DNA from: Sphingomonas naasensis
GTDB taxonomy: Bacteria; Pseudomonadota; Alphaproteobacteria; Sphingomonadales; Sphingomonadaceae
Length of the DNA: 64,000 nt
Reading direction: 5' to 3'
NCBI RefSeq assembly: GCF_004792695.1
Contig: NZ_SRXU01000001.1
Location: 1-64,000, forward strand
In this document: one piece after another, positions 6,585 through 57,568 of the stretch
Position numbering within the stretch: the first letter of the stretch is position 1
Layout of the letters: each line of letters begins with the position of its first letter
Notes under the pieces: model-generated
Told to the model about the DNA's origin: nothing
Seen by the model: the letters and a program-made list of their open reading frames with translations, nothing else
Database searches by the model: none
Position numbers and translations under genes: made by a program

Positions 6585-6616
6585 TCGCCGGCGTCGTCGC
6601 GGCGATATCTTTCCCC

Positions 6617-6719
6617 GTCATCCCCGCGAAAGCGGGGACCCATCTCCTGCGCCGCCGCGATCGCACCGGTGCGTTTGAGGATCATCCGGGCGATGGGGCC
6701 GCGCTTTCGCGGGGGTGAC
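6617..6719. repeat. REPIN-like REP doublet (CCCCGCGAAAGCGGGG type)
   Basis: Two imperfect copies of a 27-nt REP sequence face each other. The left arm begins GTCATCCCCGCGAAAGCG at 6617 and the right arm ends GCTTTCGCGGGGGTGAC at 6719, with about 3 mismatches between arms. The element lies in the 206-bp gap between dacA and holB and is followed by a related single REP. Confidence 0.75.
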
Positions 6720-6744
6720 GATTTGAAGGAGACGCTCGCGGCCT

Positions 6745-7803: not shown

Positions 7804-8229
7804 ATGTCCGCTGTTGCCTTTCCTCTCGAGGCCCTGGCGCCTATCGAGCCGCGTTCCGAGCAGGACGCCTTCTCCATTTCCGATCTGTGCGCCGAGTTCG
7901 CGGTGACCCCGCGCGCGCTGCGCTTCTACGAGGACGAGGGGCTGATCGCCCCCGAGCGCCGCGGCACCCAGCGCATCTATTCGCATGCCGATCGCGCGCG
8001 CCTCGCCTGGATCCTGCGCGGCAAGCGCGTCGGCTTCAGCCTCGCCGAGATCAAGGAGATGATCGATCTCTACGATGTCGGCGAAGGGCGCCGCGTGCAG
8101 AAGCAAGTGACGCTCGAGCGCTGCCGCGACCGCATCCAGCTGCTCGAGAACCAGAAGCGCGACATCGACGCGCACATCGTCGAGCTCCAGCAATTCGTCG
8201 AGCTGCTCGAGAGCAGCGACGCTCACTGA
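7804..8229 (+). CDS. MerR family transcriptional regulator
   Basis: 141 residues. The winged-helix MerR DNA-binding domain starts near residue 23 ([20 protein letters not shown]) and continues with [15 protein letters not shown]-terminal coiled coil (residues ~95-135) for dimerisation lacks a recognisable metal-binding cysteine cluster, so it is not a metal sensor of the MerR/CueR kind. It sits 10 bp ahead of an acyl-CoA dehydrogenase gene and has a LiuR-like operator in its own promoter. Autoregulation and control of acyl-CoA catabolism are therefore likely (inference). No Shine-Dalgarno precedes the ATG. Confidence 0.87.
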
Positions 8230-8239
8230 GGAACCTGAA

Positions 8240-10042
8240 ATGCCGCAATATACGCCGCCGGTGCGCGACACGCGCTTCATTCTGGATTCGGTGATCGGGC
8301 TCGAGCGCTACGCCAATCTGCCCGGCTTCCAGAACGCCACCCCCGATGTGGTCGAGGCGGTGCTCGAGCAGGGCGGCCAGTTCGTCGCCGAGGTGCTGTT
8401 CCCGCTCAACCATTCGGGCGATCAGCAGGGCTGCACGCGCCACGACGACGGCAGCGTGACCACGCCCGAGGGCTTCAAGGAAGCGTATAAGGCGTTCGTC
8501 GAGAGCGGCTGGGGCACGCTGAGCGCGCCGGCCGAGTTCGGCGGGCAGGAGATGCCGCACGTCGTCTCGACTGCGTTCCAGGAATATATGATCTCGGCCA
8601 ACATGGCGTTCGCGATGTATCCCGGCCTGACCCACGGCGCGATCGCCGCGCTGCTGGTCAAGGGCTCGGACGCGCAGAAGGCCAAATATGTCCCGAAGAT
8701 GATCTCGGGCGAGTGGGGCGGCACGATGAACCTCACCGAGCCGCAGTGCGGCACCGATCTGGGATTGATCAAGACGCGCGCCGAGCCGCAGGCCGATGGC
8801 TCGTTCCTGATCACCGGCACCAAGATCTTCATCTCGTCGGGCGAGCACGACCTGACCAGCAACATCATCCACCTCGTCCTCGCCAAGACCCCCGGCGCGC
8901 CCGAGAGCACCAAGGGCATCTCGCTGTTCGTGGTGCCCAAGTTCTTCGTGGGCGACGACGGCGCGCTGGGCGAGCGCAACGCGGTGTCGTGCGGCTCGAT
9001 CGAGCACAAGATGGGCATCCACGCCAACTCGACCTGCGTGATGAATTATGACGGCGCCACCGGCTGGCTGGTCGGCGAGGAGATGAAGGGCCTCGCCGCG
9101 ATGTTCATCATGATGAACGCCGCGCGCCTCGGCGTCGGGCTGCAGGGCCTCGGCGTCGGCGAGACCGCCTATCAGAACGCGGTGCAATATGCCGAAGACC
9201 GCCGCCAGGGCCGCGCGCTCACCGGCCCGGCCGAGCCGGGCGAGAAGGCCGACACGCTCTTCGTGCACCCCGACGTGCGCCGGATGCTGATGGAGGCCAA
9301 GGCGCAGACCGAGGGCCTGCGCGCGCTCTGCCTGTGGGGTGCGCTGCAGGTCGATCTCGAGCATGCCGCCGCGAGCGAGGAGGAGCGCCAGCTCGCCGCC
9401 GATCTGGTCGGGCTGCTCACCCCGGTGATCAAGGGCGTCGGCACCGATATCGGCTACAAGGTCGCGACCGACAGCCAGCAGGTCTATGGCGGCCACGGCT
9501 ACATCGCCGAATGGGGCATGGAGCAATATGTCCGCGATGCCCGCATCTCGATGATCTACGAAGGCACCAACGGCGTGCAGGCGATGGATCTGGTCGGCCG
9601 CAAGCTCGCGATGAACGGCGGCCGGGCGGTCCAGGCGTTCTTCAAGCTGGTCGCCGAGGAAGCCGGTGCCGCCAAGGGCGACGAGAAGCTCAAGGGCTTC
9701 GCCGAGGCGCTCGAGAAGGCGCTGGGCCATCTCCAGGGCGCGACGATGTGGCTGGCGCAGAACGGCTTCCAGAACCCCAACCATGTCGGCGCGGGGGCCT
9801 ATCCGTATATGCAGCTCACCGGCACCGTCGCGCTCGGGCTGATGTGGCTGCGCATGGCCAGGGCGGCAAACGAGGCGCTCGCCGCGGGTGGCGGGAACGC
9901 GAAGTTCTACGAGGCCAAGCTGGTCACTGCGCGCTTCTATGCCGAGCGCTTCCTCCCCGATGCCGGTGCGCTCCGCCGCAAGATCGAGAGCGGCAGCGAC
10001 ACGGTGATGGCGCTCGACCCGGAGATGTTCCGCGCGGCCTAG
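8240..10042 (+). CDS. Acyl-CoA dehydrogenase (long, C-terminal-domain type; DmdC-like)
   Basis: 600 residues, longer than the ~385 of ordinary acyl-CoA dehydrogenases because of an extra C-terminal domain (from about residue 465). FAD/substrate motifs include [13 protein letters not shown] and [28 protein letters not shown] (near residue 440) holds the expected catalytic-base glutamate. Architecture and length match the 3-methylmercaptopropionyl-CoA dehydrogenase (DmdC)/FadE-like group, but substrate cannot be assigned from sequence and general fatty acyl-CoA oxidation is equally plausible. It is co-oriented with and 10 bp from the merR gene. Confidence 0.9.
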
Positions 10043-10052
10043 CCATAAACCG

Positions 10053-10101
10053 GACATGAAGCGCCTCCACCATCGAAGCGTAGGAGGAGGCGCTTCATGT
10101 C
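10053..10101 (+). promoter_or_regulatory. 16-bp perfect inverted repeat enclosing the RBS and start codon of the next gene
   Basis: GACATGAAGCGCCTCC (10053-10068) and GGAGGCGCTTCATGTC (10086-10101) are exact reverse complements separated by 17 nt. The right arm contains the Shine-Dalgarno GGAGG (10086-10090) and the ATG (10097-10099). In RNA this would form a very stable hairpin that hides the initiation region. It may double as the end of the acyl-CoA dehydrogenase transcript. Confidence 0.8.
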
Positions 10102-10690
10102 GGCAATGGTTCTGATCGCTCTGCTGCTGGCGCTGCCGCAGGACTTCAATCCGACCGAGGATCGCGAGCGGACCGCAGGCGATTCGTGGTTGGCCAGGGC
10201 AAGCGAATGGAACCGCGACCCCGAGCCCTCGCTGGCTTCGGTCAATGGCGAGGCGATGCGTTTCTCTGCCACTCCGGCGCTGCGGGGAGGAGAGGCGATC
10301 ATCGTCACCATCGTGCCGGATCGGCAGGGCGATGCGATGGCGACGATCGGGGTTCGTAAGAGGACCTGCTACGACGATCGGGCTACCGGGTGCCGGCTCG
10401 TCGCCTCGCGAAGCGCGCCTTTCGCGTTCTGCATCGAAGGCGATTGCAGCTATCACCGCATCGCGCAGCGCGTTCGCGCGTTGTTGTTCGACCCGGCAAG
10501 GATGCGGCAGCCCGGTGGCGAGCCGGTGATCTGCATGGACGGTCCGGGGTACCTCACCGAATTCCGCGAAGTGGGGCAGACCTATAATCTCTCCGGCTTT
10601 TGCGGTGAGCGGCACCCGAACAATGTGATCTATCAGATTGTTCGGCAGGGCGCCGGCAAGCATTGGCCGCAAACCCCCTATCTCGAATGA
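10097..10690 (+). CDS. Hypothetical exported protein
   Basis: 197 residues. It starts with a short hydrophobic segment (MVLIALLLALP) that could be a signal peptide, followed by a soluble domain with several cysteines (KRTCYD, TGCRL, FCIEGDCSY, ICMDG, SGFCGE) that could be disulfide-bonded in the periplasm. No family recognised. GGAGG stands 6 nt before the ATG, but both are buried in a 16-bp inverted repeat, so translation may be regulated. An alternative start at 10106 would escape part of the stem but has a poor RBS position. Base composition looks less GC-rich than the flanking genes. Confidence 0.65.
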   Translation: MSAMVLIALLLALPQDFNPTEDRERTAGDSWLARASEWNRDPEPSLASVNGEAMRFSATPALRGGEAIIVTIVPDRQGDAMATIGVRKRTCYDDRATGCRLVASRSAPFAFCIEGDCSYHRIAQRVRALLFDPARMRQPGGEPVICMDGPGYLTEFREVGQTYNLSGFCGERHPNNVIYQIVRQGAGKHWPQTPYLE

Positions 10691-10753
10691 GGCCCAACGC
10701 GCGACGGCATGAAGCCGCTTGAGGCGCGGGCAAGGGCATAGCATGATCGGGCG

Positions 10754-11230
10754 ATGCGCCTGTCCATCGTGCCCTTGCAGCCTCTCGAACCCGGTCAGCT
10801 GAACGTTCTGCGCGCCCGCGGCGCGGTGATGGCGCTCGGCCTGCTCGTCCCCGCCGCCGTCGTCGAGATCGCGCTCGCCGATCGCTTGCCGGTGCACGGC
10901 GTCCTCGCCGGCGTGGCGCTGCTGCTCGGCATCTGGCTGGCGATCGTCGCGCCGCCGCGGCGCTGGCGGCATTGGGGCTATGCCTTTACCGGCAGCGAGC
11001 TCCACGTCGCGCATGGCTGGTGGACTCAGGTCCACACGATCGTCCCCGTCGTGCGCGTCCAGCATATCGACGTGGCGCAGGGGCCGCTCGAGCGCGGGTT
11101 CGGCGTGGCGCGGCTGATGCTGCACACCGCCGGCACCGACCAGACCGTGGTGGCCTTGCCCGGCATCACCCGCGCGACCGCCGAGGAAATCCGCGACGCG
11201 ATCCGCGCGCGGATCGGCAGCGCGGCGTGA
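10754..11230 (+). CDS. PH domain-containing membrane protein, YdbS family
   Basis: 158 residues: two transmembrane helices (about residues 25-75), then one bacterial PH-like (bPH2) domain with the pattern WGYAFTGSELHVAHGWW...VPVVRVQHIDVAQGPLER typical of YdbS. The gene overlaps the next (YdbT-like) by 4 bp (GTGA). YdbS/YdbT pairs are widespread; their exact role in the inner membrane is not settled. Confidence 0.88.
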   Translation: MRLSIVPLQPLEPGQLNVLRARGAVMALGLLVPAAVVEIALADRLPVHGVLAGVALLLGIWLAIVAPPRRWRHWGYAFTGSELHVAHGWWTQVHTIVPVVRVQHIDVAQGPLERGFGVARLMLHTAGTDQTVVALPGITRATAEEIRDAIRARIGSAA

Positions 11231-12666
11231 ACGACGAAGCGCCGCGCCGGGTCCATCCCGGCACCGTCGTGATCGGCCTCGTCAAATCGGCGCCGTCGAC
11301 ATTGTTCGCGCTGCCGGCGATGCTCGCCTTCGGGGGCGAGCTGGGCATCGGCCTGGTGCTGCTGCTGACGCTCGCCGGTGTCGCGGCGCTGACCTTCTTC
11401 GCCTGGCTGAGCTGGTGGCAGCTGCGCTATCGCCTCACCGCCGATGCGTTCCTGATCGAGAGCGGCGTGCTCCATCGCAGCCGGCGCTCGATCCCGCTCG
11501 AGCGCGTGCAGGACGTCTCGATCGAGCAGAAGCCGCTCGCGCGGCTGCTGGGGCTGGCGCTGGTGCGGATCGAGACCGGCGGCGGCGACAAGGACGAAGC
11601 GACGCTCGACAGCGTGACGCTCGCCGAGGCGCGCCGGCTGCGGCTGGCGCTGCGCCGCGGTCCGGCCGTGGCGGCGGGCGAGGCCGGCGCGGCGCCCGAA
11701 AGCGCGGCGGATGCCGGCCGAGCCTTGTTCGCGATGCCGCTCGCGCGGGTGCTGCTCTACGGGCTGTTCAACTTCTCGCTGGTGTGGCTCGCGGCGATCT
11801 TCGCCTTGCTCCAGACCGTCGACGACGTGCTCAAGTTCGATTGGCAGGCGCTGATCGGGATCGCCGGGCGCGAGGTACGCAGCCATCTGACCGTGACCGC
11901 GGGACTCTCGGTGCTCGCGGTCGCGCTGGTGCTGGGCGTCGCCGCCGGGCTGCTGCGCACGCTGGCCCGCGAATATGGCTTTCGCCTCGATGCGCGCGAG
12001 GGGCGCTTCAGGCGGGTTCGCGGGCTGCTGACGCGCAGCGAGGTGGTGATCGTGCGGGCGCGGGTGCAGCTGGCGCTGATCCGCCGCGGCGCGATCAGCG
12101 GGCGGCTCGGCTGGCGGAGCCTCGATTTCCAGACCCTCGGCGGCAGCGACGACCGTTCGGGCCGGCAGGAAATGGCGCCGTTCGCGCGCGAAGCGGAAAT
12201 CGAGCGGGTGATCGACGCGGCCGGGCTGCCGCGTTTCGAGGCCGATGCGCTGATACCGGTATCGCGTGGGCACATCGTGCGCGCGGCGCTGCGGCACGGG
12301 CTGCCGGTGGTGCTGGCCTTCGCGATCGGCGGGGCTTTCCTGCCCTGGCTGTGGCTGGGGCTGGCGCTGGTGCCGATCCCGGTCGGGGTGGCGCTGCTCC
12401 AGCGGCGCCGGCACCGCTATGGGCTGCGCGATACCAGCGTGCAGGTGACGCGCGGCGTATTGTCGCAGCGCGAGTGGATCGTGCCCTATGATGCGATCCA
12501 GACGGTGTCGGTCCGGCGGAGCTGGCTCCAGCGCCGGCTGGGGCTCGCCACGGTGGCGATCGATACCGCAGGCGCACGGGGTTTCCACCGCCCCGACATC
12601 GCCGATGTCGCCGCGCCGATCGCCGCCGAGCTGGCGCCGGCGCTGCTCGCCCGCGCGCTTGCCTAG
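11227..12666 (+). CDS. PH domain-containing membrane protein, YdbT family
   Basis: 479 residues from a GTG start that overlaps the stop of the YdbS gene, implying translational coupling. Three bPH2 repeats are visible, each with the family's Y-R-L-t / I-P-y-e-R-v-Q-d-v pattern: RYRLTADAFLIESGVLHRSRR near residue 70, RFRRVRGLLTRSEVVIVRAR near 265, and RYGLRDTSVQVTRGVLSQRE near 400. Membrane-helix pairs separate them. The 3' end overlaps the convergent hydrolase gene by 4 bp. Confidence 0.87.
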   Translation: MNDEAPRRVHPGTVVIGLVKSAPSTLFALPAMLAFGGELGIGLVLLLTLAGVAALTFFAWLSWWQLRYRLTADAFLIESGVLHRSRRSIPLERVQDVSIEQKPLARLLGLALVRIETGGGDKDEATLDSVTLAEARRLRLALRRGPAVAAGEAGAAPESAADAGRALFAMPLARVLLYGLFNFSLVWLAAIFALLQTVDDVLKFDWQALIGIAGREVRSHLTVTAGLSVLAVALVLGVAAGLLRTLAREYGFRLDAREGRFRRVRGLLTRSEVVIVRARVQLALIRRGAISGRLGWRSLDFQTLGGSDDRSGRQEMAPFAREAEIERVIDAAGLPRFEADALIPVSRGHIVRAALRHGLPVVLAFAIGGAFLPWLWLGLALVPIPVGVALLQRRRHRYGLRDTSVQVTRGVLSQREWIVPYDAIQTVSVRRSWLQRRLGLATVAIDTAGARGFHRPDIADVAAPIAAELAPALLARALA

Positions 12667-49009: not shown

Positions 49010-49017
49010 TCCCCGAT

Positions 49018-49092
49018 GCTCCTGCGAAAGCAGGAGCCCGGGATTGCGAGCGGCGTCCCTTGCGACTCCTGGGCTCCTGCTTTCGCAGGAGC
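49018..49092. repeat. REPIN (GCTCCTGCGAAAGCAGGAGC doublet) between purN and purM
   Basis: The left arm GCTCCTGCGAAAGCAGGAGC starts at 49018 and the right arm GCTCCTGCTTTCGCAGGAGC ends at 49092. The 20-mers are exact inverted copies and each arm is itself palindromic around GCGAAAGC/GCTTTCGC. Confidence 0.85.
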
Positions 49093-49102
49093 ACGGTAGC
49101 GC

Positions 49103-57398: not shown

Positions 57399-57470
57399 CG
57401 GGGGCCCATATACTGGTCTTCGGGTTGACAAAAGAGTGTGTGGGGGGAAAGCGCACGCCCACATATCACC

Positions 57471-57550
57471 GTCATCCCGGCGAAAGCGGGGATCTCGCGC
57501 GGCAAGCGGCGAACTCCCTCGACGGAGATCCCGGCTTTCGCCGGGATGAC
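57471..57550. repeat. REPIN (GTCATCCCGGCGAAAG... doublet), 80 bp
   Basis: The left arm GTCATCCCGGCGAAAGC starts at 57471 and the right arm GCTTTCGCCGGGATGAC ends at 57550. The two 26-nt arms are inverted copies with one mismatch, around a ~28-bp centre. Located in the 5' region of aspS; same family as 6745-6770. Confidence 0.9.
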
Positions 57551-57568
57551 GACCTAGAGAAGAGAACC

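What the first reader, a model, noticed from the sequence alone, without database searches (positions are those of the whole stretch)
10053..10101. 16-bp perfect inverted repeat that buries the RBS and start codon of a hypothetical gene
The arms GACATGAAGCGCCTCC and GGAGGCGCTTCATGTC are exact reverse complements; the right arm contains both the GGAGG Shine-Dalgarno and the ATG. Such a stem would nearly abolish initiation unless opened by a protein, temperature, or ribosomes arriving from the acyl-CoA dehydrogenase gene 55 bp upstream. It is much longer than needed for a simple terminator and has no T run.
Basis: seen in the sequence. Interest (0 to 1): 0.6.

Follow-up and report, generated by a model that had tools for sequence, protein, structure and literature searches.

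The report
Hairpin hiding a gene's start site
In what appears to be a Sphingomonas genome, a very stable RNA hairpin covers the ribosome landing site of a rare gene of unknown function, so the gene is probably kept nearly silent unless a passing ribosome opens the hairpin; this is an extreme case of a known kind of control and is not yet proven.

Summary
The inverted repeat is real: arms 10053-10068 and 10086-10101, 16 bp perfect, SD and ATG in the right arm. It folds at -41.7 kcal/mol (0 of 200 shuffles as stable). Opening the start region costs 31.0 kcal/mol; at that setting none of 185 background starts reaches it. No T run follows, exact copies occur in 1 of 295 same-genus genomes, and it stays closed at 60 C.

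The gene is an orphan (3 of 295 genomes), downstream of the same acyl-CoA dehydrogenase gene in all three. The two orthologues (53-55% identical) lack this left arm but have other stems nearby: strong over the G118 start codon, moderate over the G116 SD, whose ATG is mostly free. Starts of another gene at this junction are also rather closed, so conserved closure is only suggested.

Ribosomes ending the upstream gene stop 10 nt short of the stem. As CAUG is its own reverse complement, the left arm carries an AUG that opens a 19-codon out-of-frame ORF through the stem: the best candidate opener, unproven.

Verdict: probably an SD-sequestering, translation-coupled hairpin. A non-functional palindrome and a 3'-end hairpin remain serious rivals.

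The parts
8240..10042 (+). acyl-CoA dehydrogenase gene, 600 aa, stop TAG 10040-10042
   Evidence: Pfam acyl-CoA dehydrogenase domains; match at E<=1e-200 in 267 of 295 genomes searched
10053..10068 (+). left arm of the perfect inverted repeat; complementary to SD and start codon
   Evidence: one place in own genome; exact inner-stem pattern in 1 of 295 genomes
10056..10115 (+). possible short ORF (19 codons and stop), out of frame with the gene, starts in the left arm and reads through the whole stem and the gene's start
   Evidence: translation; no SD seen; 5 of 51 starts, the window gene itself counted, show such a crossing ORF, so weak by itself
10069..10085 (+). 17-nt spacer, partly paired; the upper stem continues past an A-A mismatch
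10083..10090 (+). Shine-Dalgarno GGAGGAGG; GGAGG to ATG spacing 6 nt, as in both orthologues
10086..10101 (+). right arm, contains SD core and ATG 10097
10097..10690 (+). orphan gene, 197 aa, perhaps exported (short hydrophobic N-terminus, Cys at 91, 99, 112, 117, 146, 169 shared by all three sequences); second in-frame ATG at 10106
   Evidence: no match in Pfam (E<=0.01), NCBIfam or PHROGs (E<=0.1); orthologues 53 and 55% identical; dN/dS about 0.19 between the two orthologues
10705..10753 (+). sequence that in relatives without the gene follows the dehydrogenase coding end directly; marks the segment before it as inserted here or deleted there
   Evidence: junction alignment with 6 relatives
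10754..11230 (+). bacterial PH-domain (bPH_2) gene, the usual next neighbour
   Evidence: Pfam PF03703; begins 41-46 nt after the dehydrogenase stop codon in 8 of 30 loci

Best explanation
A cis-acting translational lock. On an mRNA that runs on from the acyl-CoA dehydrogenase gene, the left arm pairs with the SD and start codon of an orphan, perhaps exported protein and shuts off direct initiation (inferred from folding). The protein is made only when a ribosome passes through the stem. The likeliest such ribosome ends the dehydrogenase gene at 10042, restarts at AUG 10056 in the left arm, reads the 19-codon out-of-frame ORF through the stem to 10115, and so frees or re-enters the gene start (the ORF is in the sequence; its use is inferred). 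Shown: repeat, predicted fold and energy, gene order, other predicted stems near the start of both orthologues. Inferred: co-transcription, repression, the opener.
For: Stem -41.7 kcal/mol, z -6.7. Opening cost of -14..+3 is 31.0, 0 of 185 background starts as high; RNA lacking the left arm costs 11.2 (from 10069) or 5.3 (from 10080). With the upstream 44 nt shuffled, 0 of 1000 reach the window value, 2 of 1000 the G118 value, 28 of 1000 the G116 value. At the same setting the orthologues rank 0 of 185 (G118, 23.7) and 4 of 185 (G116, 18.7). When left parts are swapped in the computer, the native left part closes best for the window and G118 right parts at all three cut points and for G116 at two of three. 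dN/dS of about 0.19 between the orthologues says that the gene is a real one. No sigma-70-type promoter match in 8000-11500, so read-through from the dehydrogenase gene is plausible, though that scan expects only 0.5 by chance and covers one promoter type. SD-hiding structures opened by a short upstream ORF are known (iraD, PMC5574718, passages seen).
Against: No close relative carries the gene, so no strict covariation test exists; the G116 and G118 stems pair in different registers. In G116 the ATG itself is mostly unpaired (0.67 at 37 C). Orthologue ranks depend on the measure: over 12 settings G118 runs from 0 to 76 and G116 from 4 to 48 of 185; opening -16..-5 in G118 is ordinary (49, 60 and 76 of 185). 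The start of the unrelated bPH_2 gene in 8 relatives with a direct junction costs 14.7-21.9, at or above the G116 value (18.7) in 5 of 8, so a rather closed start at this junction is not special to the orphan gene; none of the 8 reaches G118 or the window. The short ORF has no SD, its frame relative to the gene differs from that of the crossing ORFs of G116 and G118, and in G118 that ORF is not short (it ends 407 nt past the start). G116 and G118 are relatives of each other, not independent. No expression data.
Confidence: 0.4

Rival explanations
1. A young palindrome without a regulatory role: the left arm arose by inverted copying (template switching) from the gene start, or chance pairing was perfected, and it merely damages translation of a dispensable, patchily present gene.
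For: Exact stem in 1 of 295 genomes; gene in 3 of 295 and not found after the dehydrogenase in 27 of 30 best-matching loci; the right arm resembles the SD-to-ATG stretch of the G118 orthologue, so the left arm may be the derived copy (read by eye).
Against: Both orthologues also have structured starts by the default measure; the window ORF is intact and keeps the residues that the orthologues share.
Confidence: 0.27
2. A 3'-end hairpin of the dehydrogenase mRNA (stabiliser against exonucleases, or a weak terminator); covering the next start is a side effect of the short gap.
For: It begins 10 nt after the stop codon. Within 120 nt after the same stop, 4 of 30 loci (this one counted) have perfect repeats with arms of 16 or more (G223 28, G281 17, G116 16, window 16) and 10 of 30 have arms of 9 or more.
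Against: 1 T in 8 after the stem on the + strand; in the 8 direct-junction loci the longest perfect repeat there is 5-9 bp, so the dehydrogenase mRNA does without such a hairpin in those species.
Confidence: 0.18
3. DNA-level site: an operator for a regulator, or a promoter whose transcripts start inside the loop, so that the left arm never enters the gene's mRNA and the start is free.
For: RNA starting at 10080 has an opening cost of only 5.3 kcal/mol. The orthologues carry a genome-wide promoter-like motif that begins 54 nt before their ATG.
Against: No sigma-70-type match found (low power); that motif is not seen in the sequence before the window gene; 16-bp perfect arms are longer than usual operators (recalled).
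Confidence: 0.1
4. RNA thermometer of the ROSE or fourU kind.
For: SD held in a stem in an alphaproteobacterium.
Against: ATG unpaired probability 0.000 at 20 C and 0.004 at 60 C; the four Rfam matches are not thermometers; perfect stem rather than bulged (recalled criterion).
Confidence: 0.02

Closest known systems
iraD of E. coli with its short upstream ORF27 (PMC5574718; passages seen)
   Same: A structure hides the SD of the main gene; a short upstream ORF runs into the start and its translation raises expression.
   Different: ORF27 has its own SD, is regulated by CsrA, and its stop overlaps the iraD start; here the short ORF starts inside the hiding arm, has no SD seen, and nothing is tested.
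MS2 phage start-hairpin mutants and translational coupling (PMC9894550; passages seen)
   Same: A stem over the start sets expression; upstream translation can open a downstream start.
   Different: The table rows that I saw run from -6.63 to -9.49 kcal/mol (the passage was cut off); this stem is about -38 to -42 by another energy set.
REP / palindromic intergenic repeats (PMC3733652, start of abstract in a listing only)
   Same: Strong intergenic palindrome shortly after a stop codon; REP-like ones occur at this very place in related species.
   Different: One place in the genome, no GCGAAAGC core, overlaps SD and ATG.

Membership tests
SD-sequestering translational-control hairpin (translationally coupled) | SD and start codon paired in the stable predicted fold of the mRNA | tested here: met
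SD-sequestering translational-control hairpin (translationally coupled) | pairing kept by selection in relatives | tested here: inconclusive
   orthologues have other stems; G118 strong over the start codon, G116 moderate with a mostly free ATG; not column-wise covariation; another gene's starts at the junction are also rather closed
SD-sequestering translational-control hairpin (translationally coupled) | an upstream ORF whose translation would cross the stem | tested here: inconclusive
   ORF 10056-10115 exists in sequence; its translation is not shown; 5 of 51 starts, this one counted, have such an ORF
SD-sequestering translational-control hairpin (translationally coupled) | output rises when the stem is opened | not testable with these tools
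   needs a reporter
intrinsic terminator | G+C-rich stem followed by a T run | tested here: not met
   1 T in the 8 bases after the right arm on the + strand; on the - strand 4 of 8
RNA thermometer | SD and start become free within the growth temperature range | tested here: not met
   still closed at 60 C
RNA thermometer | match to a described thermometer family in Rfam | tested here: not met
   one search lists four families, none a thermometer, all below their gathering scores
REP / dispersed palindromic repeat | many copies in the genome | tested here: not met
   one place in own genome; exact pattern in 1 of 295 genomes

The most novel reading that the evidence does not exclude
A self-starting lock: because CAUG is its own reverse complement, a perfect stem that buries a CAUG start must carry an AUG in its other arm. 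That AUG opens an out-of-frame ORF whose translation melts the lock, and the orthologues of this orphan gene have each built an unrelated stem for the same end, so that closure of the start, not sequence, is what selection keeps.
Probability: 0.12. Interest if true: 0.5.

Novelty: new member of a known kind. Interest (0 to 1): 0.3.

Why it matters
If the lock works, it is an unusually clean natural test of how far a perfect start-burying stem can silence a gene and of how ribosomes open it. It could also be a case of a start kept closed with no conserved sequence, which usual covariation searches would miss. If it does not work, it shows how a palindrome can mimic regulation.

Tried and rejected
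Terminator: disfavoured by the missing T run; the scan could not have listed a stem with this loop. Thermometer: rejected. Known RNA family: none; the four listed matches are far below their gathering scores. Dispersed repeat: rejected for exact copies. Plasmid or viral gene: no match in plasmids or viral contigs; the phage record collection was not searched. Function of the gene: no family; one weak PDB sequence match (E 0.013, adhesion protein 6xi3, not followed); AlphaFold model too poor to use (mean pLDDT 48.2), so no fold search was run. Wider homologues: relatives draw 2 of 61 at E<=0.001, one of them a weak partial match in G024 with stops inside (not counted as the gene); genus 3 of 295; a family draw 1 of 397 and an order draw 1 of 246, in both cases only the window genome; genome contigs with the single protein none, with the alignment two, both titled Sphingomonas kyeonggiensis. 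A first ranking of 250 crudely predicted starts by total fold energy put the gene 7th; I replaced it by opening cost because many of those starts looked false. Papers: the paper search; no listed title or abstract start was about this element; no wider claim of absence from print is made. PMC5972666 passages were seen and used only as background.

Own slips: one search read the minus-strand loci on the wrong strand (redone); the L012 row printed is offset because that locus is cut short (placed correctly); one search failed because one end coordinate held a stop codon (rerun without that protein).

Full report
What is there. The repeat is exactly as described: 16 perfect bp, arms 10053-10068 and 10086-10101, spacer 17 nt, 19 long with one mismatch. 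The right arm holds the SD core GGAGG and ATG 10097. The RNA folds at -41.7 kcal/mol with z -6.7 and 0 of 200 shuffles as stable; the stem persists when 9950-10250 is folded. In 304 kb of the genome 6 perfect repeats have arms of 16 or more, against a mean of 0.0 in random sequence of two kinds, 10 runs each; four have REP-like cores, one ends in TTTTA like a terminator, and this one is neither.

How tight the lock is. The predicted cost of opening -14..+3 is 31.0 kcal/mol; 185 background starts with an SD from this genome, G116 and G118 average 9.4 (sd 4.1) and none reaches it. These starts were chosen by a simple filter (SD, open frame of 100 codons or more, G+C by codon position), not by annotation. 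With 100 nt upstream and 60 nt downstream the cost is 25.1, still 0 of 185; over all 12 settings the window ranges from 0 to 24 of 185. Without the left arm the cost is 11.2 (RNA from 10069) or 5.3 (RNA from 10080). The ATG stays closed at 60 C (unpaired probability 0.004). The unfolding-time formula seen in PMC9894550, put to a -38 kcal/mol stem, gives about 1e20 s; that is my own arithmetic, far outside the measured range, and says only that spontaneous opening can be ignored.

The gene. ORF 10097-10690 encodes 197 aa with no Pfam, NCBIfam or PHROG match. It occurs in 3 of 295 same-genus genomes. Contig lengths and positions of the two others agree with loci titled Sphingomonas kyeonggiensis, from which I infer the genus. 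They are 53 and 55% identical to the window protein, and dN/dS between them is about 0.19, so it is a real protein gene. A hydrophobic start and six shared cysteines suggest export (inference), which would argue against the protein regulating its own mRNA. Shared protein sequence starts at the second ATG (10106), but the GGAGG-to-ATG spacing of 6 nt, as in both orthologues, favours 10097.

The place. The gene lies downstream of the dehydrogenase gene in all three genomes, 54 nt (window), 178 nt (G116) and 602 nt (G118) after its stop, and the bPH_2 gene follows in all three. In 8 of the 30 loci with the best-matching dehydrogenase genes the bPH_2 gene begins 41-46 nt after the stop codon, without the orphan gene; in 27 of 30 loci the orphan gene is not found in the 1500 nt after the stop. 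The window sequence after the orphan gene, from CGGCATGAAGCCGCTTGAG (10705), aligns with what follows the dehydrogenase coding end in six relatives, so the segment with hairpin and gene was inserted here or deleted there. The left arm, CATGAAGCGCC, resembles this junction sequence, CATGAAGCCGC; I could not tell whether that means anything.

Relatives of the hairpin. The exact inner stem pattern is in 1 of 295 genomes. The orthologues lack the left arm but have other predicted stems. Default measure: G118 23.7 (0 of 185 as high), G116 18.7 (4 of 185). Over the 12 settings G118 runs from 0 to 76 and G116 from 4 to 48 of 185; the weak G118 settings are those that open -16..-5. In G118 the ATG is closed; in G116 it is mostly free (unpaired 0.67) while the SD side is paired. 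Upstream shuffles reach the observed value in 2 of 1000 (G118) and 28 of 1000 (G116). Swapping left parts between G116 and G118 lowers closure both ways (18.7 against 15.4-16.0; 23.7 against 13.0); the window left part pairs widely and at one cut point beats the native G116 left part (21.9 against 18.7). The stems pair in different registers, so this is not strict covariation. A control against the reading: the start of the bPH_2 gene in the 8 direct-junction relatives costs 14.7-21.9, 5 of 8 at or above the G116 value, none at the G118 or window value (these starts were not chosen for an SD). So closure conserved without sequence is suggested by G118 and the window, not shown.

What could open it. 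The dehydrogenase stop is 10 nt before the stem. A terminating ribosome covers roughly a dozen nt past its A site (recalled), so it would touch only the first pairs. Because CAUG is self-complementary, the left arm holds an AUG (10056), 13 nt after the stop, within usual restart distances (recalled). Its ORF of 19 codons, MKRLHHRSVGGGASCRQWF, crosses the whole stem and ends at 10115. In both orthologues an ATG 34 nt before the start opens an out-of-frame ORF that crosses the start; it ends 41 nt (G116) and 407 nt (G118) past it, and the first parts of the peptides differ. Such crossing ORFs exist at 5 of 51 starts, the window gene itself counted, so this alone is weak. The iraD case (PMC5574718, passages) shows that translation of a short upstream ORF can raise expression of a gene whose SD is hidden.

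A hairpin after the dehydrogenase stop. Within 120 nt after that stop 4 of 30 loci have perfect arms of 16 or more (G223 28, G281 17, G116 16, window 16) and 10 of 30 have 9 or more. This recurrence is what a 3'-end role would predict, and is why that rival stands at 0.18.

Verdict. The best reading is a translational lock opened by passing ribosomes (0.40), with a non-functional palindrome (0.27), a 3'-end hairpin (0.18) and a DNA-level site (0.1) as rivals. It is an extreme member of a known kind.

Noticed in passing
L006, L007, L069-L088 (positions): The motif CTTGCAATGTNGGAW occurs 15 times in the window genome, 34 in G116, 31 in G118 and 29 in G223, with 0 for the reversed-pattern control in all four. 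It looks like a promoter or regulator site shared by these genomes; one copy begins 54 nt before both orthologues, none is seen before the window gene.
   Followed up: partly
L017, L024, L079, L085, L088: 5 of 27 distinct copies of that motif in the fetched loci have GTTC-N7-GTTC within 60 nt from the motif's start, which resembles the alphaproteobacterial LexA box (recalled); in L017 it lies before a GIY-YIG-like gene (label recalled, not searched).
   Followed up: partly
window 10042-10754 and loci L008-L037: The stretch after the dehydrogenase gene varies among species: orphan gene, GIY-YIG-like gene (label recalled), REP-like hairpins, or a direct junction to the bPH_2 gene.
   Followed up: partly
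direct-junction loci L009, L011-L015, L019, L033: The start of the bPH_2 gene also lies in a rather closed predicted fold (14.7-21.9 kcal/mol; in L011 and L013 the ATG sits between short inverted arms ATGGTC/GACCAT).
   Followed up: no
window 6616-6720, 49017-49093, 57470-57551: Large REP-like palindromes with GCGAAAGC cores.
   Followed up: no
window 10097-10690: The orphan gene has lower G+C at third codon positions (0.768) than the dehydrogenase gene (0.918), which may hint at foreign origin or weak expression.
   Followed up: no
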